Origin: Lachnospiraceae bacterium
Lineage (GTDB): Bacteria > Bacillota > Clostridia > Lachnospirales > Lachnospiraceae
Length of the DNA: 64,000 bases
NCBI GenBank assembly: GCA_022796795.1
Contig: JAAWJI010000010.1
Location: 28,956-92,955 of the forward strand
Direction of reading: 5' to 3'
Shown: positions 51,676 through 59,676 of the stretch, piece by piece
Numbering within the stretch: the first letter of the stretch is position 1
How the letters are laid out: each line of letters begins with the position of its first letter
Position numbers and translations under genes: made by a program
The notes under the pieces: generated by a model
The model's database searches: none
Told to the model about the DNA's origin: nothing
The model's input: the letters and a program-made list of their open reading frames with translations, nothing else

Positions 51676-52368
51676 ATGATCTATTCACATGAAGTTGAAA
51701 AAATGTGTCCGGTAGCACAGGGCGTAGCTCACGGCGCAGCTCCGATTCCGGAAGAGGCAAAGTGGGTGCAGGCAAAAGAAATCAAGGATATTTCCGGTCT
51801 GACTCATGGTGTGGGCTGGTGTGCACCCCAGCAGGGCGCCTGCAAGCTTACCCTGAATGTTAAGGACGGCATTATCCAGGAGGCTCTGGTGGAGACGCTG
51901 GGATGTTCCGGTATGACCCATTCCGCTGCCATGGCTTCTGAGATTCTTCCCGGAAGAACCCTTCTGGAGGCTTTGAATACAGACCTGGTGTGCGACGCCA
52001 TCAATACAGCTATGCGCGAGCTGTTCCTGCAGATCGTCTATGGAAGAACCCAGAGTGCATTTTCCGAGGACGGACTTCCCATTGGCGCAGGCCTTGAGGA
52101 CCTGGGCAAGGGCCTGAGAAGCCAGGTAGGAACCATGTACGGAACTCTGAAGAAGGGACCCCGCTATCTGGAGATGGCAGAGGGCTATGTAACCGGAATC
52201 GCTCTGGATGAAGAGGATCAGATTATCGGCTACAAGTTTGTCAACCTGGGAAAGATGACGGATTTCATCAAGAAGGGCGACGATCCCAATACCGCTTGGG
52301 AGAAGGCACAGGGGCAGTATGGACGCGTGGATGATGCAGTAAAGATCATCGACCCGAGACAGGAATAA
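51676..52368 (+). CDS. Iron-sulfur cluster assembly scaffold-like protein (GGGtGRT partner)
   Basis: 230 residues. The N-terminal region resembles an IscU/NifU-type scaffold: Cys in GVGWCAPQQGACKL, the glycine-rich GCSGMTHSAAMASEILPGRTL with a further Cys, and a third conserved Cys in DLVCDAI. The C-terminal extension (about 150-230) is not part of standard IscU. It precedes the GGGtGRT gene by 16 bp, a conserved pair in anaerobes. Cluster assembly for an unknown target is the best guess. GAAAGGAG ribosome site. Confidence 0.8.
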   Translation: MIYSHEVEKMCPVAQGVAHGAAPIPEEAKWVQAKEIKDISGLTHGVGWCAPQQGACKLTLNVKDGIIQEALVETLGCSGMTHSAAMASEILPGRTLLEALNTDLVCDAINTAMRELFLQIVYGRTQSAFSEDGLPIGAGLEDLGKGLRSQVGTMYGTLKKGPRYLEMAEGYVTGIALDEEDQIIGYKFVNLGKMTDFIKKGDDPNTAWEKAQGQYGRVDDAVKIIDPRQE

Positions 52369-52384
52369 TCGAGGAGGGATAGAA

Positions 52385-53395
52385 ATGGCTTTATTTGAAT
52401 CATATGAGAGAAGAATTGACAAAATCAGTGAGGTTTTGAACAGCTATGGCATTGCTTCCATCGAAGAAGCAGAGAAGATCACCAAGGATGCAGGCTTAAA
52501 CGTATACGATCAGATCAAGGGAATTCAGCCCATCTGCTTTGAGAATGCATGCTGGGCATATACCGTAGGCGCTGCCATTGCCATCAAGAAGGGTTGCCGC
52601 AAGGCTGCAGACGCTGCCGCAGCCATCGGAGAGGGCCTGCAGGCATTCTGTATTCCGGGTTCTGTGGCAGACACCCGCAAGGTAGGTCTGGGACACGGAA
52701 ATCTGGGCAAGATGCTGCTGGAGGAGGAGACGGAATGCTTCGCATTTCTGGCAGGCCATGAGTCCTTTGCAGCCGCAGAGGGAGCAATCGGTATCGCAGA
52801 GAAGGCCAACAAGGTGCGCCAGAAACCCTTACGCGTAATCCTGAACGGTTTGGGCAAGGATGCGGCACAGATTATCGCCAGAATCAATGGCTTTACATAT
52901 GTGGAGACCGAGTATGATCCCTACACCAATGAGGTGAAGGAGGTATTCCGCAAGGCATACTCCCAGGGTCTGCGGGCCAAAGTAAACTGCTACGGCGCCA
53001 ACAGCGTTCCCGAGGGCGTAGCGATCATGTGGAAGGAGAACGTAGATGTTTCCATTACCGGAAACTCCACCAATCCCACCCGGTTCCAGCATCCTGTGGC
53101 AGGTACCTACAAGAAAGAGCGCCTGGAAGCGGGCAAGAAGTACTTCTCCGTGGCATCCGGCGGCGGCACCGGCCGTACCCTGCACCCGGATAACATGGCA
53201 GCAGGACCGGCTTCCTACGGAATGACCGATACTCTGGGCCGTATGCACTCTGACGCGCAGTTTGCAGGTTCCTCCTCCGTGCCGGCTCACGTAGAGATGA
53301 TGGGTCTCATCGGCGCAGGAAATAACCCCATGGTTGGCATGACTGTGGCGGTAGCAGTGGCCATTGAGGAAGCGGCCACAGCTGGGAAGTTCTAA
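52385..53395 (+). CDS. GGGtGRT family protein
   Basis: 336 residues; the family is named for the motif seen here in SVASGGGTGRTLHPDN (about 257-272). Several Gly-rich loops (GLGHGNLGKML, VILNGLGKDAA, GAGNNPMVG) suggest nucleotide or cofactor binding. Cysteines occur in QPICFENACWAY and FCIPG. Codon use suggests high expression. No function is known to me; the fixed pairing with a scaffold-like gene suggests that it receives or uses Fe-S clusters. Confidence 0.88.
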   Translation: MALFESYERRIDKISEVLNSYGIASIEEAEKITKDAGLNVYDQIKGIQPICFENACWAYTVGAAIAIKKGCRKAADAAAAIGEGLQAFCIPGSVADTRKVGLGHGNLGKMLLEEETECFAFLAGHESFAAAEGAIGIAEKANKVRQKPLRVILNGLGKDAAQIIARINGFTYVETEYDPYTNEVKEVFRKAYSQGLRAKVNCYGANSVPEGVAIMWKENVDVSITGNSTNPTRFQHPVAGTYKKERLEAGKKYFSVASGGGTGRTLHPDNMAAGPASYGMTDTLGRMHSDAQFAGSSSVPAHVEMMGLIGAGNNPMVGMTVAVAVAIEEAATAGKF

Positions 53396-53470: not shown

Positions 53471-53885
53471 GTGCTCCCGGTGGCGCACGTTTCCAACGGG
53501 TGCAAGTCCCGAATCCGCCCGGTAGTCTCTGATTTGACGAACAGAAATCACATATGAGGTTATGCATGGGGGTAAGACTGCAACACAAGCCAAAGCCTGA
53601 TAACTACACGGAATCATGCATGATAAATGTGGCAGATGGATGGAGAGAAGGAAACGTGTGGTACCTGGGGAGGTCTGTGCGGCATGCTCTGAAAAGAGTA
53701 ACCATCGCAGAAAGCGGTGCTGAAACCGAATCAGTAGGAGTCTTAAGGATGACCGGGAAAGAATCCACGGGATGACTGTTGAGGAAGCGCGTCCGTACCT
53801 AAAGAAACACCAACGCTTCATGTTCCTATGCAGTTGCGGCTCCTGTTTATTTAGGTCATCGACAAGTAGAAACTTAAAGCCTAAT
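53471..53885 (+). mobile_element. Group II intron relic (5' part, no reverse transcriptase)
   Basis: Begins GTGCTCCCGG, near the GUGYG start of group II introns, and contains AACGGGTGCAAGTCCCG, GGTAGTCTCTGA, and GTAGGAGTCTTAAGGATGACCGGG, which resemble domain I elements of clostridial introns. A short frame MTVEEARPYLKKHQRFM (from 53772) may be the start of the lost intron-encoded protein. No reverse transcriptase or clear domains V/VI remain, so the element is dead. Boundaries are approximate. Confidence 0.55.
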
Positions 53886-53890
53886 TTTTG

Positions 53891-53919
53891 TTGACAGCTT
53901 CTACAGCATCAAGTATAAT
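53891..53919 (+). promoter_or_regulatory. Consensus promoter of the riboswitch and nik-type operon
   Basis: TTGACA 53891-53896, exactly 17 bp, TATAAT 53914-53919: a perfect sigma-A promoter, suitable for a gene controlled after initiation. Confidence 0.85.
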
Positions 53920-53943
53920 TAAAAAATAGAAATTGAATAGAGA

Positions 53944-54120
53944 GCTAAGTGCCGGAAAAATCCGGATAATAGGGAATGGAGTGTAAATCTCCAACGAACT
54001 GGTCACTGTGAACGGGGAGCTTTTCCGCAGAAGCCATTGTGCGAAGGCATGAGAAGGCGCGGGAAGGTCATGATCTGAAGTCAGGAAACCTGCTTGGTTC
54101 TGAATCATTGACGCTTCCAA
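53944..54120 (+). ncRNA. Cobalamin (adenosylcobalamin-type) riboswitch
   Basis: Core elements in order: GCCGGAAAAATCCGG hairpin, AATAGGGAATGGAGTGTAAA, GCCATTGTG, GGGAAGG, and the B12 box AAGTCAGGAAACCTGC (54078-54093). This order matches the cobalamin riboswitch family. The expression platform is the terminator at 54184-54211, so ligand binding should stop transcription of the transporter genes downstream. Boundaries are estimated to within about 10 nt. Confidence 0.9.
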
Positions 54121-54183
54121 GACTAAGTGTTCAAGAGAAAAGTATGCGCAGCTTTTTATAGGTATGGGCGCTTATGTGGTAAG

Positions 54184-54211
54184 GAAACGTTGATGAACGT
54201 TTCTTTTTTTT
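54184..54211 (+). terminator. Riboswitch-controlled terminator
   Basis: GAAACGTT (54184-54191), loop GATG, AACGTTTC (54196-54203), then eight T. Lies between the cobalamin aptamer and the first transporter gene. Confidence 0.9.
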
Positions 54212-54300
54212 GTCTGCAGACAGGACCGCGGCCTTTGGGGATTTTCTCCTGTCTGTGGGTAGAGCAGTAAATCTTTACGATGATAAACCAGGAGGACATT

Positions 54301-55962
54301 ATGAAGAGAAAAGTATGGAGTACAATGCTTGTTCTTGCTATGCTGTTATCCTTGACAGCATGCGGACAGAAAGAAGCGGCAGAGGCGCCGGAAACGGTTC
54401 AGGAGACCCAGGAGCAAAAGGAGGAGCAAGAACTCTCTAAGGAGGAGACAGAGGCGCCGGAGGAAAAGAGCAACACCCTGGTGGTCCGGACAGCCAAGGA
54501 TATTGGGGATATGAATCCTCATACCATGAAAAGTCAGATGTTTGCCCAGGATTGGGTTTATGAGAGCCTGGTGGCTATGAAGAATGGGGAGATCGTCCCG
54601 GAACTGGCCGAGAGCTGGGATGTTTCTGAGGATGGGAAAACCTATACCTTCCATCTGAGAAAGGGTGTGAAATTCAGCGATGGCAGCGAGTTTAATTCGG
54701 AAATTGCAAAAAGGAATATTGAGGCAGTGAAGGCTCATGCAGACGGCTATTCCTTCTTGCAGTCTCTGGCCTCTGTGACAGAGATGGAGACGCCGGACGG
54801 GGACACTCTGGTGTTGCATTTAAGCGAGCCCTGCAATTCTCTGTTGAGTGATTTTACCTTCAGCCGTCCGCTGGTGATGCTGGGGGAGGCTGGTTTTCCC
54901 ACGGAAGGAGATCCCTATGACAATGGCGTCACAGAGCCTGTGGGAACCGGTATGTGGGTGCTGAAGGAGCATGTGCCGGATCAGTATGCGGTGTTTGAGC
55001 GGAATGAAAATTATTGGGGAGAAAAGCCGGCGTTTCAGTATCTGAGGGCTGTGGTGATTCCTGATGTAAATACAGCGGCCTCCGCCCTGAAGGCGGGAGA
55101 GATTGATCTGATGATGGATTCCACCCAGATTACTGCAGAGCTTTATGAAGAGCTGGGAGCAGCAGGCTTCTATACGGCACAGGCTCCCACCACCAGTATT
55201 TCCAATCTGAATATCAATACGGCAGGAGAGATTACCGGGGATCTGAACGTGCGTCTGGCCCTGGAATATGCCACCGATAATACAGCTATTTCCCAGGGGA
55301 TTTTTAACGGACTCCAGGAGCCGGCCACGGCCTATTTCTCTCAAGCAGTTCCCTATACGGATACCGGCATAGAACCCTACCCCTATGAACCGGAAAAAGC
55401 AAAGGAAATCCTGGAGGAGAGCGGTTGGGTTTATGAGGGCAGCGATACGGTCCGCTCCAAGGATGGAAAGAAACTGGAGATTGATCTGATCTACGATTCC
55501 TCTGTGACAAAGGATAAGGATATCGGCCTGATTCTCCAGTCCCAGTATGCAGAGGTGGGGATTCAGTTGAATATTGTTCCCCAGGACAGCCAGGTTTATC
55601 GAGAGAACTGGACAAAGGGAGACTTTGGAGTCCTGATTTACAGCTCCTGGGGCGGTTCCTACGAGCCCTATGCAACCCTGGCGGCTATGGCCAAGGAGGG
55701 AGACAAGTTTCACACGGTGCAGAAGGGCATGAGCAACAAGGCGGAGCTGGATCGGATCATGATCGACTGTCTGAGCCAGACGGATTCTGCCAAGCTTGCC
55801 AAGAATTTTTCCTATATTATGCAGAGCTTCCACGACGAGGCCGTGTATGTGCCTCTGACGGTTACCAGCAAGCTGGGAATCATGCGCAGTGATTTGACAG
55901 GCATGGATCTGGCGGCAGGGCAGGACAGCATTGATGTGGGCAAAGTAACCTGGGCGGAATAG
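54301..55962 (+). CDS. NikA-type ABC transporter substrate-binding lipoprotein
   Basis: 553 residues, SBP_bac_5 family. Lipoprotein signal ends at LTAC (Cys19), then a Glu/Ala-rich linker to about residue 58. The core resembles E. coli NikA: AKDIGDMNPHTMKSQMFAQDWVYESLV and FERNENYWGEKPA. By memory alignment the NikA metal-binding His416 (in FHRTWG) is Tyr here (IYSSWG), so free nickel binding as in E. coli is doubtful. First gene under a cobalamin riboswitch; cobalt, a cobalt complex, a corrinoid precursor or a peptide are possible ligands. ATG 54301 follows CCAGGAGGAC. Confidence 0.9.
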   Translation: MKRKVWSTMLVLAMLLSLTACGQKEAAEAPETVQETQEQKEEQELSKEETEAPEEKSNTLVVRTAKDIGDMNPHTMKSQMFAQDWVYESLVAMKNGEIVPELAESWDVSEDGKTYTFHLRKGVKFSDGSEFNSEIAKRNIEAVKAHADGYSFLQSLASVTEMETPDGDTLVLHLSEPCNSLLSDFTFSRPLVMLGEAGFPTEGDPYDNGVTEPVGTGMWVLKEHVPDQYAVFERNENYWGEKPAFQYLRAVVIPDVNTAASALKAGEIDLMMDSTQITAELYEELGAAGFYTAQAPTTSISNLNINTAGEITGDLNVRLALEYATDNTAISQGIFNGLQEPATAYFSQAVPYTDTGIEPYPYEPEKAKEILEESGWVYEGSDTVRSKDGKKLEIDLIYDSSVTKDKDIGLILQSQYAEVGIQLNIVPQDSQVYRENWTKGDFGVLIYSSWGGSYEPYATLAAMAKEGDKFHTVQKGMSNKAELDRIMIDCLSQTDSAKLAKNFSYIMQSFHDEAVYVPLTVTSKLGIMRSDLTGMDLAAGQDSIDVGKVTWAE

Positions 55963-55964
55963 CT

Positions 55965-56903
55965 ATGATTCGCTATCTGTTAAAACAAATGCTGGAACTG
56001 GTTCCTCTGTTGTTTCTGGTATCAGCGGCAGCCTTTTTCCTGATCCGACTATTGCCCGGAGATCCGGCCACAGCCTATCTGAACTCAGTGAATGTGCCTG
56101 TTACGGAGGAGAGCCTGCAGCTGGTCAGGGAGGAGCTGGGCCTGGACGATTCTGTCCAGGTCCAGTATGTAAAATGGCTGGGACAGGTTCTTCAGGGAGA
56201 TTTGGGAAATTCCTACCAGACAAAGCAGCCGGTGATCCAGGAGCTTAAGACGGATTTAAAGTATACTGGGATTCTGGCCTTGGCAGCGCTTGTCTGGGTG
56301 CTTGTCCTCAGCGCCTTTTTCGGAATTCTGGCAGCGGAAAAGGCAAACAGCTTTTGGGACAGACTCATTCGGGGCTTTACCTTTCTGGGAGCTGCCATGC
56401 CAAAGTTCTGGCTGGGCTTTCTTCTGGTGCTTTTGTTTTCTCTGAAATGGAAGCTGTTTCCGGTGCAGGGGGCTACCAGTCTCAGGTGTCTGATTCTGCC
56501 ATCTTTCACCCTGGCCTGCTCCTACATAGCTACCTACACAAAGCTGCTCCGAAACAGTATTTTGGAGATTAAGAATCAACCCTATGTGGCCTATGCCAGA
56601 GTCCGGGGCTTTACCAGAAAACAGGTCATCCGGCGTCATGTGATTCCCAATGCGCTGCTTCCCGTCTGCACGGCTCTGGGGCTTCATATAGGAGGAATTT
56701 TGTCAGGAGCTGTGATTGTGGAGAATGTTTTTTCCTGGCCGGGCCTGGGAAGAATGTGTGTGAGTGCAGTGGCCTCCAGAAATTATCCTATGATTCAGGG
56801 ATATATTCTTTTGATGGCGGTAATCTTTGTTGTCACCAATCTGATTTCGGATATGGCCTGTGCGGCTTTGAATCCAAGAATCCGGTTAGGAGCAGAAAAA
56901 TGA
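55965..56903 (+). CDS. ABC transporter permease, NikB-type
   Basis: 312 residues, six helices, DppB/NikB group. N-terminal LLPGDPATAYL and the inner-membrane EAA-like loop YVAYARVRGFTRKQVIRRHVIPNALLP are typical. Starts 2 bp after the binding-protein stop and overlaps the next permease by 4 bp. Confidence 0.92.
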   Translation: MIRYLLKQMLELVPLLFLVSAAAFFLIRLLPGDPATAYLNSVNVPVTEESLQLVREELGLDDSVQVQYVKWLGQVLQGDLGNSYQTKQPVIQELKTDLKYTGILALAALVWVLVLSAFFGILAAEKANSFWDRLIRGFTFLGAAMPKFWLGFLLVLLFSLKWKLFPVQGATSLRCLILPSFTLACSYIATYTKLLRNSILEIKNQPYVAYARVRGFTRKQVIRRHVIPNALLPVCTALGLHIGGILSGAVIVENVFSWPGLGRMCVSAVASRNYPMIQGYILLMAVIFVVTNLISDMACAALNPRIRLGAEK

Positions 56904-57691
56904 AAGGGAGAATCTATTTGTTTTTGCCAGTCTTGCTTTTGCTGGCCTGTCTTTTGGCGCCTTGGCTGGCGCCCTGTGATCCCAACCAGGCGGATCCAAC
57001 CATGAAATTTGCAGAAATGTCCCCGGAACATTGGCTGGGAACCGATTATCTGGGAAGAGATATTTTCTCCCGCTTGCTGTGGGGCGGACGGAGGACCATG
57101 GGCTATGGGGCTCTGGTAACTGCAGTCTCAGCCCTTGTGGGCACTGGGCTTGGCATGCTGTCCGGACTTGCGGGAGGCTTTTTTGACGGGGCGGTTATGA
57201 AGGGAAGCGATGTTCTGCGCTCTTTTCCCGGAGTGGTTCTGGTGCTGATTGTGGTCAGTATCCAGGGCGTGGGCATTAGAAGCATCTGCCTGGCTATGTT
57301 GCTTACCAGGTGGATTTGGTATGCAAGAATGGCCAGGAATATGACCCGGGTGGAAATGGGACGGACCTCCATCCAGGCAAGCCGCCTGGCGGGGAGCAAC
57401 TGGTTCAAGATTCTGAGACGTCATATTTTTATATCCATTCTTCCGGAAATGCTGCCGGTGCTGTCACTTGACTTTGGAGGGGCGCTTCTGGCGATTTCCA
57501 GCTATTCTTTTCTGGGACTGGGAATCCTGCCGCCGGAGGCAGAGTGGGGCATGATGATCAATGACGGGCGCAATTATATGGAGCATCCAGGCATGATGCT
57601 GTGGCCCGGGCTCTGTGTGGTTTTGATTGTGATCAGTGTAAACCTTTTGGGGGACAAGCTTCGGGATAGATTGGAGGCGAGAAGATCGTGA
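56900..57691 (+). CDS. ABC transporter permease, NikC-type
   Basis: 263 residues, DppC/NikC group. HWLGTDYLGRDIFSRLLWGGR is the family N-terminal motif; the EAA loop is IQASRLAGSNWFKILRRHIF. The ATG at 56900 overlaps the previous stop (ATGA). The open frame upstream of it lies inside nikB and is not part of the gene. It overlaps the next gene by 4 bp (GTGA). Confidence 0.92.
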   Translation: MKGRIYLFLPVLLLLACLLAPWLAPCDPNQADPTMKFAEMSPEHWLGTDYLGRDIFSRLLWGGRRTMGYGALVTAVSALVGTGLGMLSGLAGGFFDGAVMKGSDVLRSFPGVVLVLIVVSIQGVGIRSICLAMLLTRWIWYARMARNMTRVEMGRTSIQASRLAGSNWFKILRRHIFISILPEMLPVLSLDFGGALLAISSYSFLGLGILPPEAEWGMMINDGRNYMEHPGMMLWPGLCVVLIVISVNLLGDKLRDRLEARRS

Positions 57692-58659
57692 AAGAAAATA
57701 CTGCAGATCTGCTCTCTACACAGGGACTTGCAGTATCCATGCGGGACGGGAAGGAGCTGATTCCTGTGGTTCATCCCTGCGATATCTCTGTAAAGCGCGG
57801 CGGGTGTACGGGAATCATAGGAGAGAGCGGCTGCGGGAAGTCCATGATCTGTAGAGCGCTTCTGGGGCTGCATGCTCCGGAGCAATGGCAGATTGGGGGA
57901 CAGGTGTATCTGGACGGAGAGCAGGTTCCCATAGAATCAGACGATGCCATGGATGGCTTTCGCGGCAGGCGCATGACCATGATCCTTCAGGAGCCCCTGT
58001 CTGCTTTTGATTCCCGTATGACCATCGGAGCTCATTTTCTGGAGGGCTGCAGGAGAAAACAAAAGGCACTTCGACGGCAGGGGGCGGAAGAATGGCTGAA
58101 GCGCATGGATCTACAGGATCCCGGGGGGCTTATGAAACGGTATCCCTTTGAGCTCAGCGGAGGAATGTTGCAGCGGGTGATGATTGCCTTAAGCCTGATG
58201 ACAGAGCCGGAGCTTCTTATCGCGGATGAGCCGACCACAGCCCTAGACAGTACGGTACAGAGGGATATTCTCCTGCTGCTTGCAGAGCTGAAAAAGGAGT
58301 GGAATTTGTCTCTCCTGCTGGTTTCCCATGACCTGCGGGTAATATCCCGGATGGCGGACCGGATTTATGTCATGTACGCAGGACAAATCGTGGAATGGGG
58401 GTCTATGGAAGAGCTTATGGAAAACCCGCTCCATCCCTATACAAAGGGGCTGATTCGATCCCGGCCTTCTTATTCCAAGGAGCGTCTCACAGCCATGACG
58501 GGGCGTCCTCCCAGGGTGGGAGAATGGATGGGAGCAGGATGTCCCTTTGCCCCTCGCTGTCCGGAGGCGGCTGGGGAGTGCTCTGGGGAACTGCCGGAGC
58601 TAAAACAGACAAAGGGGGAGCATTTTGTGAGATGTTGCAGGCAATGGGACAGGGGATGA
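57688..58659 (+). CDS. ABC transporter ATP-binding protein, NikD-type
   Basis: 323 residues. Walker A GESGCGKS, Q-loop region MILQEPLSAFD, signature FELSGGMLQRV, Walker B LLIADEPTTALD, H-loop VSHDL. Ends with the Opp/Dpp C-terminal motif CPFAPRCPEAAGEC, whose cysteines can bind a metal cluster in some members. GTG start, coupled to the permease gene. Confidence 0.92.
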   Translation: MKENTADLLSTQGLAVSMRDGKELIPVVHPCDISVKRGGCTGIIGESGCGKSMICRALLGLHAPEQWQIGGQVYLDGEQVPIESDDAMDGFRGRRMTMILQEPLSAFDSRMTIGAHFLEGCRRKQKALRRQGAEEWLKRMDLQDPGGLMKRYPFELSGGMLQRVMIALSLMTEPELLIADEPTTALDSTVQRDILLLLAELKKEWNLSLLLVSHDLRVISRMADRIYVMYAGQIVEWGSMEELMENPLHPYTKGLIRSRPSYSKERLTAMTGRPPRVGEWMGAGCPFAPRCPEAAGECSGELPELKQTKGEHFVRCCRQWDRG

Positions 58660-58722
58660 CAGACAGTAAGTATCCCATTAGGGAGCATGATAGACATGAT
58701 GTTCAGGCAGGGGGGACAGGGA

Positions 58723-59676
58723 ATGACGGAAGCAGGAGAGAAGACGCTGCTGGAGGTAAGGAATCTACATAAAACCTATGGCAGCTGGAAGAGAAAGCCA
58801 GTATATGCTCTGGACGGAGTGAGCTTTTCTTTGCAGGAGGGCTGCTGCCTGGGGGTAGTGGGGGAGAGTGGTTGCGGAAAAAGCACTCTTTGCCGTGTGA
58901 TTGCCGGTATCGAGAGGCAGGACCGGGGCGAAGTTCTCTATGAAGGAAGCTCCATGGATTATAAAAAGAGGCGAAATAGCCTGCAAATGGTATTTCAGAA
59001 CAGCATGGACGCAGTGAATATTCACTTACGGGTGGGGGACATTATCGCTGAGCCTCTGGAAAATTTTACCTCTCTGAACCGGACCCAGAGGGAGCAGGAG
59101 GTGGGAAGGCTCCTGGAGCTGGTGGGACTTTCTGTAGAGGATCGGATCAAATATCCCAGGCAGTTTAGCGGCGGACAGCTTCAGCGCATCTGCATCGCCA
59201 GAGCCTTGGCGGCGGATCCCAGGATTTTGCTTCTGGATGAGCCCTTAAGCAGTCTGGATGTATCGGTCCAGGCTCAGCTATTAAATCTTTTATGGGATTT
59301 AAAAAAGGAATTTAAGCTTACCTGCCTGCTGGTTTCCCACGATTTAGAGGCTGTGTATTATCTGGCGGATAAGCTTCTGGTGATGTATGGGGGCGCTGTA
59401 GTGGAGGAATTGGTGGATATCCGGGATTTTGCCCGCCTGAGGCATCCCTACACCCGGCGCCTCATAGAGGCCGGAGCTCTGGAGGAGGAAGGCTGGGAGG
59501 TTGTCCCAGAGAGAGCGGGGATTTTAGGGAGAAAGGAAAGCTCGGGGGGTCTCCTGGGGAAGGGCTGTGTCTACGCAAAGCATTGTCCGCGGGCAAAAGA
59601 GAGCTGCTTTGAGAGAAGACCTGTGCTTTCCCAGTGGGAGGCCGGGCATAAAATTGCCTGTCATCTAAGTACATAA
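58723..59676 (+). CDS. ABC transporter ATP-binding protein, NikE-type
   Basis: About 317 residues. Walker A GESGCGKST, signature FSGGQLQRICIARAL, Walker B ILLLDEPLSSLD, H-loop VSHDLEAVYYLAD, and a C-terminal CVYAKHCPRAKESC cysteine motif. ATG 58723 gives the usual N-terminus (LLEVRNLHKTYG soon after) with AGGGGGG upstream; ATG 58687 is an alternative. Last gene of the importer operon. Confidence 0.9.
   Translation: MTEAGEKTLLEVRNLHKTYGSWKRKPVYALDGVSFSLQEGCCLGVVGESGCGKSTLCRVIAGIERQDRGEVLYEGSSMDYKKRRNSLQMVFQNSMDAVNIHLRVGDIIAEPLENFTSLNRTQREQEVGRLLELVGLSVEDRIKYPRQFSGGQLQRICIARALAADPRILLLDEPLSSLDVSVQAQLLNLLWDLKKEFKLTCLLVSHDLEAVYYLADKLLVMYGGAVVEELVDIRDFARLRHPYTRRLIEAGALEEEGWEVVPERAGILGRKESSGGLLGKGCVYAKHCPRAKESCFERRPVLSQWEAGHKIACHLST

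What the first reader, a model, noticed from the sequence alone, without database searches (positions are those of the whole stretch)
53891..59676. Cobalamin riboswitch controlling a five-gene NikABCDE-type importer
A consensus promoter, a cobalamin aptamer and a terminator stand directly before a binding protein, two permeases and two ATPases. Known B12-riboswitch targets are usually BtuFCD, cobalt transporters of other types, or synthesis genes. A Nik/Opp-class importer under B12 control points to uptake of cobalt, a cobalt chelate, a corrinoid fragment or another precursor. The aptamer and genes are seen; the substrate is inference.
Basis: partly seen in the sequence, partly recalled or inferred. 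Interest (0 to 1): 0.72.

Follow-up and report, generated by a model that had tools for sequence, protein, structure and literature searches.

The report
B12-riboswitch-controlled Nik-type cobalt importer
An RNA element matching the vitamin B12 riboswitch family sits directly in front of five genes for a pump of the nickel-importer class, which is predicted to be shut off when B12 is plentiful and likely brings in a cobalt complex for making B12; the arrangement itself is known from a few other bacteria, but this pump's binding pocket differs from that of the classic nickel importer.

Summary
In detail: a 12-of-12 promoter, a full-length cobalamin riboswitch (RF00174, 105 bits, E 3e-25), a terminator, then binding protein, two permeases, two ATPases. 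[quoted passage not shown] What is added: (1) all 6 loci found at 70% identity or more (window included) carry the riboswitch. (2) The binding protein belongs to a group (19 of 69 rows aligned) that replaces NikA's metal ligand His416 with Asp and Trp100 with Phe, 17 of 19 also lacking Arg97; three riboswitch-linked NikA proteins elsewhere keep the canonical pocket. (3) Each of 8 genomes read has a Nik-class importer behind a cobalamin riboswitch, of three types; two of the eight were picked for lacking the window type. (4) All 13 genomes tested carry cbiD; of six with the window type only one has the usual cobalt transporter CbiM, but three controls lack CbiM too. (5) A P13 hairpin and a terminator are predicted in 5 of 5 leaders, with a competing antiterminator, arguing for an OFF switch. 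Best reading: a cobalt-chelate importer for B12 synthesis. Switching and substrate are inferred.

The parts
53891..53919 (+). sigma-70 type promoter TTGACA-17-TATAAT
   Evidence: 12 of 12 consensus match
53930..54111 (+). cobalamin riboswitch aptamer (RF00174)
   Evidence: 105 bits, E 3e-25, full model; found upstream in all 6 loci at 70% identity or more, window included
54108..54134 (+). predicted P13-type hairpin (54108-54116 with 54125-54134)
   Evidence: predicted in 5 of 5 leaders; the CGCTTCC core 54112-54118 is invariant in 5 of 5
54105..54117 (+). predicted antiterminator strand, pairs with the terminator 5' arm (54183-54195); overlaps the P13 5' side
   Evidence: duplex -13.2 kcal/mol, 1 of 500 letter shuffles as low; present in the minimum-energy fold of the nascent leader
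54181..54211 (+). intrinsic terminator hairpin and T tract
   Evidence: a terminator found in 5 of 5 leaders
54301..55962 (+). solute-binding lipoprotein, NikA/CntA superfamily (SBP_bac_5)
55965..56903 (+). permease, NikB/OppB class
   Evidence: Opp2B 359 bits against cut-off 350; TIGR02789 347 against 447
56900..57691 (+). permease, NikC/OppC class
   Evidence: TIGR02790 258 bits, below its cut-off of 358
57688..58659 (+). ATPase, NikD/OppD class
   Evidence: TIGR02770 244 bits, below cut-off; oligo_HPY C-terminus
58687..59676 (+). ATPase, NikE/OppF class
   Evidence: PRK11308 276 bits and TIGR02769 248 bits, both below cut-off
53526..53650 (+). neighbouring group II intron fragment (RF02001), not part of the system
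   Evidence: 90 bits

Best explanation
This is a cobalamin-riboswitch operon for a five-gene ABC importer of the Nik class that most likely takes up a cobalt chelate to feed B12 synthesis and is predicted to be switched off by cobalamin. Shown: promoter, aptamer match, terminator-like hairpin, the five genes, the riboswitch upstream of all close relatives found, the altered binding pocket, and cbiD in every carrier genome tested. Inferred: when a cobalamin is bound, the P13 hairpin forms, takes up the antiterminator strand and lets the terminator form, so the genes are off; when cobalamin is scarce, the antiterminator forms and the importer is made. The lipoprotein would then catch cobalt held by a small organic chelator and pass it through the permease pair, driven by the two ATPases, for insertion into the corrin ring (a CbiK-like cobaltochelatase lies behind another riboswitch of this genome).
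Against: NikA's metal ligand His416 is Asp in the group, and Trp100 and mostly Arg97 are lost, so a NikA-like direct metal contact cannot be assumed. G000 itself also has riboswitch-driven CbiM and CbiN. CbiM is missing as well from G120, G121 and G282, which have no riboswitch-linked window-type importer, and the background frequency of CbiM in the family was not measured. No chelator-synthesis gene was recognised beside the operon in the window or in the four relatives' neighbourhoods read by eye. Six of the 8 genomes in the riboswitch count were chosen for carrying such an importer. Antiterminator pairing in L011 does not beat shuffles (147 of 500), and the minimum-energy fold of L012 does not show it. 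No binding or expression data.
Confidence: 0.6

Rival explanations
1. A corrinoid or corrinoid-precursor importer: the binding protein would take up cobinamide, a corrinoid fragment or a lower-ligand or side-chain precursor, repressed by the end product.
For: Riboswitch control equally fits salvage; Peripla_BP_2/FecCD-type importers also follow cobalamin riboswitches in these relatives. The pocket is not the NikA pocket.
Against: A Peripla_BP_2/FecCD/ATPase importer beside a CobU gene exists in this genome, although NCBIfam does not name it BtuFCD over cut-off and no riboswitch precedes it. Nearest folds are metal-chelate binders. cbiD is present in all six carriers of the window type, so the corrin ring can probably be made.
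Confidence: 0.12
2. A nickel importer that happens to lie behind a cobalamin riboswitch.
For: TIGR02294 (nickel NikA) over cut-off; NikA is the best fold match.
Against: B12 feedback on nickel has no evident logic; His416, essential for nickel uptake in E. coli according to the title of PDB 3qim, is Asp; most pocket residues named in PMC11091072 (passages) are changed. Nickel enzymes and NikR were not searched in this genome.
Confidence: 0.08
3. A peptide or other organic-nutrient importer for a B12-dependent pathway.
For: The SBP_bac_5 family is broad; the other two riboswitch-linked importer types have binding proteins far below the NikA cut-off (206.5 and 128.9 against 393).
Against: The window protein itself is over the NikA cut-off, and fold scores fall from 44-47 (NikA) to about 33-37 for dipeptide-binding proteins.
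Confidence: 0.1
4. An opine-metallophore importer of the CntA kind.
Against: The score is under the CntA cut-off of 800; the tree puts the staphylococcal and Paenibacillus rows that I take for CntA-like in a different clade; no opine-synthesis gene was recognised in the neighbourhoods read by eye, and none was searched for genome-wide.
Confidence: 0.07

Closest known systems
B12-riboswitch NikABCDE of Clostridium tetani, Desulfitobacterium hafniense (PMC2667541) and Sporomusa ovata nikA (PMC9600662)
   Same: A cobalamin riboswitch before a NikABCDE-type operon; the first two are set apart from nickel-specific members; the S. ovata riboswitch is described as promiscuous, that is responsive to several corrinoids
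   Different: Their binding proteins were not compared here by name; the riboswitch-linked NikA proteins found in three other genomes of the class (L113, L114, L116) keep the canonical NikA pocket, whereas the window group does not
E. coli NikABCDE (NikA 1zlq and others)
   Different: Cobalamin riboswitch instead of NikR control (NikR in E. coli: PMC2667541); Tyr22, Arg97, Trp100, Ser415 and His416 replaced; 30% identity
Staphylococcal CntABCDF
   Different: Other clade in the tree; no opine genes recognised nearby; CntA model far below cut-off
CbiMNQO cobalt ECF transporter
   Same: Riboswitch-controlled cobalt supply for B12; would work toward the same end
   Different: Unrelated proteins; CbiM not found in 5 of 6 genomes carrying the window-type importer, one of them 59% complete and two of unstated completeness
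Priestia megaterium metE corrinoid riboswitch (PMC10653944)
   Same: P13 hairpin, antiterminator and terminator arranged for repression
   Different: There the 3' side of P13 is shared with the antiterminator (passages); here folding predicts the 5' side

Membership tests
Cobalamin riboswitch (RF00174) | match to the covariance model over the gathering score | tested here: met
   105 bits against 31.5, model 1-189 of 189
Cobalamin riboswitch (RF00174) | binding of a cobalamin and change of expression | not testable with these tools
   only the folding prediction of competing P13, antiterminator and terminator
Cobalamin riboswitch (RF00174) | L5-L13 kissing loop | not tested
   a P13 hairpin is predicted, but no convincing L5-L13 pairing was worked out
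NikA (TIGR02294) | score over the curated cut-off | tested here: met
   456.4 against 393
NikA (nickel-type pocket) | His416 and Arg97 of the Ni-chelate site | tested here: not met
   Asp and Gly at the aligned places
NikABCDE | permeases and ATPases over the NikB/C/D/E cut-offs | tested here: not met
   TIGR02789 347 against 447; TIGR02790 258 against 358; TIGR02770 244 against 319; TIGR02769 248 against 333; Opp2B is over cut-off
CntA (NF047575) | score over the curated cut-off | tested here: not met
   369 against 800; separate clade
Cobalt importer | transport of cobalt | not testable with these tools
   inferred from the riboswitch and genome context

The most novel reading that the evidence does not exclude
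In B12-making Clostridia of the Lachnospiraceae kind that lack CbiM, Nik-class importers with at least three unlike binding proteins have each come under cobalamin riboswitches as the replacement cobalt supply, and the window group (PCNS/GDKF motif, no His416) recognises a new cobalt chelate by a pocket that does not touch the metal with histidine.
Probability: 0.35. Interest if true: 0.62.

Novelty: new variant of a known kind. Interest (0 to 1): 0.42.

Why it matters
How B12 producers without CbiM get their cobalt is unclear, and nickel-type importers cannot be told from cobalt-type ones by name. A riboswitch-marked group with a consistently changed pocket gives a direct handle: the binding protein can be purified and asked which cobalt complex it takes. 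If it holds, a set of proteins named 'nickel ABC transporter' in Clostridia (as several listed relatives are) are cobalt-chelate importers.

Tried and rejected
The riboswitch status of the deeper members of the group (proteins P0044 to P0083, among them Fusobacterium P0080) could not be read, as no DNA for them was obtained; a Fusobacterium vincentii record (L138) holds a less similar protein (36.6% identity) with no cobalamin riboswitch in the stretch fetched, only an FMN riboswitch on the other strand. An L5-L13 kissing loop was looked for by eye and not settled. The conserved cysteine (NikA position 126) was considered as a metal ligand and not claimed, since that position is not among the pocket residues in the passages of PMC11091072 that I saw. 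The group II intron fragment upstream was found only in the window's own locus among the loci scanned and is taken as incidental. Counts: 50 distinct SBP loci were scanned with Rfam (52 with two duplicates, L124 and L126; this genome's own L006 not counted), 10 positive; of the 40 negatives L098, L134 and L135 have too little upstream sequence to tell. The pocket table holds 69 rows, of which 20 are proteins that I picked from the 120 listed of 3139. Rows L030, L121 and L095 were dropped from the tree. One search treated rows of unknown status as lacking the riboswitch and gave 4 changes; with the 35 unknown rows left out it gave 3, still with L098, L134 and L135 as negatives. The tree is the 'quick' method and warns of long branches. 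Confidence in the best explanation was lowered from 0.62 to 0.60 on recheck, because the antiterminator and CbiM evidence is somewhat weaker than first written.

Full report

How the switch likely works. In the five leaders compared (window, L011, L012, L015, L035) the segment CGCTTCC is invariant. It forms part of the 5' side of a predicted P13 hairpin in 5 of 5. It can also pair with the 5' arm of the terminator: -13.2 kcal/mol in the window, 1 of 500 letter shuffles as low; 16 to 20 of 500 in L012, L015 and L035; 147 of 500 in L011, which is not convincing. In minimum-energy folds of the leader without the terminator's 3' arm this pairing appears in four of five, not in L012. Terminators are found in 5 of 5. 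P13 and the antiterminator exclude each other, as in the repressing metE riboswitch of PMC10653944 (passages), although there the shared strand is the 3' side of P13. Direction of control and ligand are thus inferred: cobalamin bound, genes off.

Conservation. Of 50 distinct loci with related binding proteins scanned with Rfam, 10 have RF00174 upstream: all 6 with 70% identity or more to the window protein (L010, which is the window, L011, L012, L095, L015, L035; L012 and L095 are from one genus and give the same match), three more distant NikA proteins of other families in the class (L113, L114, L116), and L121, a relative of this genome's second riboswitch importer. Three negatives (L098, L134, L135) lack enough upstream sequence. 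The window protein's close relatives are rare: 4 of 397 family genomes (G000, G013, G019, G343) and 2 of 4 genomes of its genus. The flanks read by eye in L139, L140, L015 and L035 look unlike each other, which suggests that the module moves as a unit.

The pocket. Using the NikA contact residues given in PMC11091072 (passages) as a ruler, 19 of 69 aligned rows have Cys at NikA position 126. All 19 have Asp for His416, Gly for Ser415 and Phe for Trp100; 17 of 19 lack Arg97 and 17 of 19 have Met for Tyr22; all keep Arg137, Trp398 and Tyr402. The riboswitch-linked L113, L114 and L116 keep His416 and Arg97. So cobalamin control was joined to two pocket types, in separate parts of the tree (quick method). 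Two further rows inside the clade (L096, P0075) have lost this motif; L096 shows no riboswitch. The exact column for His416 rests on the alignment of a short loop.

Genome context. This genome has five cobalamin riboswitches: the window operon; a second five-gene importer whose binding protein is 28% identical and below the NikA cut-off (206.5 against 393); the cbi operon; CbiM, CbiN and a CbiK-like chelatase (the CbiK score is 276 against a strict cut-off of 400); and one with no recognisable gene behind it. In seven further genomes 22 cobalamin riboswitches were found. Over all 8 genomes, 9 of 27 lead into Nik-class importers: the window type in G000, G013, G019, G1088 and G1089; the L006 type in G000 and G134; and a permease-first type in G120 and G121, whose G120 permeases exceed the Opp2B and Opp2C cut-offs and whose third gene is an SBP_bac_5 protein (L164 and L165 by Pfam). 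Of the other 18, 5 lead into cbi genes, 1 into CbiM-CbiN-CbiK, 3 into CbiK-like genes, 3 into Peripla_BP_2/FecCD-type genes (FecCD by Pfam in L154, L158 and L159; Peripla_BP_2 in L154 and L158), 4 have no recognisable gene in sense, and 2 in G1088 are unclear (one precedes a 1211-residue protein with a FecCD gene further on, L169). Where no family search is cited, these names are my reading of the translations. G120 and G121 were chosen because they lack the window type, so they are an independent look; the other six were chosen for having an importer of this kind.

Need for cobalt. cbiD is present in 13 of 13 genomes tested. CbiM is present in 4 of 13: G000 and the three genomes with canonical riboswitch-linked NikA. 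Of six genomes with the window type, five show no CbiM (G343 is 59% complete; completeness of G1088 and G1089 is not stated). But G120, G121 and G282 also lack CbiM, and the family background was not measured, so this is support and not proof. G000 has no CbiQ next to CbiM and CbiN; its three CbiQ-family proteins lie elsewhere.

Prior art. PMC2667541 (passages) states that NikABCDE members of C. tetani and D. hafniense were predicted to be preceded by a B12 riboswitch and exempts them from being nickel-specific. PMC9600662 (passages) calls the S. ovata nikA riboswitch promiscuous and uses its aptamer in a chimera. PMC4285132 (passages) reports 73-fold and 346-fold repression of two riboswitch-controlled genes in Dehalobacter on adding cobalamin, supporting repression as the usual sign. 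My full-text searches listed no paper whose title or abstract start is about this group or about Nik-type importers of Lachnospiraceae; the library holds open-licence papers only, I opened only some of those listed, and the D. hafniense riboswitch paper cited in PMC4285132 was not held.

Verdict. A real arrangement of a known kind, in a new variant. Cobalt, as a chelate, is the most likely substrate (0.60). The more interesting part is the changed pocket and the repeated recruitment of unlike Nik-class importers in B12 makers without CbiM.

Noticed in passing
L007 2126-2323 (this genome, C72); L155/L168, L151/L166, L152/L167 in three genomes of the same genus: A cobalamin riboswitch with no recognisable gene in sense direction behind it in all 4 genus genomes read (a terminator follows it in L007; short ORFs lie further on in G013 and G121, the 123-residue one in G013 matching no Pfam family). 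In G000, G013 and G121 it stands back to back with a phage-integrase-family gene (Pfam), and a Zot-family (filamentous phage type) gene lies near it in G120 (Pfam). It could be a regulated small RNA or a relic of gene loss.
   Followed up: partly
L006 1-6312 (this genome, C33) and L141 (G134): A second, unlike five-gene Nik/Opp-class importer behind a cobalamin riboswitch; in G134 this is the only RF00174 match found.
   Followed up: partly
L164 4850-10992 (G120) and L165 5688-10872 (G121): A third riboswitch-linked Nik-class importer with permeases first and the binding protein third; in G120 it is followed by an AstE/aspartoacylase-family gene, which might act on an imported ligand.
   Followed up: partly
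window 53526-53650: Group II intron fragment (RF02001, domains 1-4 model) upstream of the promoter; no long reverse transcriptase ORF lies between it and the promoter.
   Followed up: no
window 51676-53395: A NifU/IscU-like protein (weak match, below cut-off) followed by a GGGtGRT protein (PF14057, 627 bits).
   Followed up: no
L009 9770-11750: CbiM and CbiN followed by a CbiK-like chelatase behind a riboswitch without CbiQ or CbiO beside them.
   Followed up: partly
L143 387-1465 (G013): A CbiK-like cobaltochelatase (237 bits, below the strict cut-off of 400) with what looks like a lipoprotein N-terminus, behind a cobalamin riboswitch.
   Followed up: no
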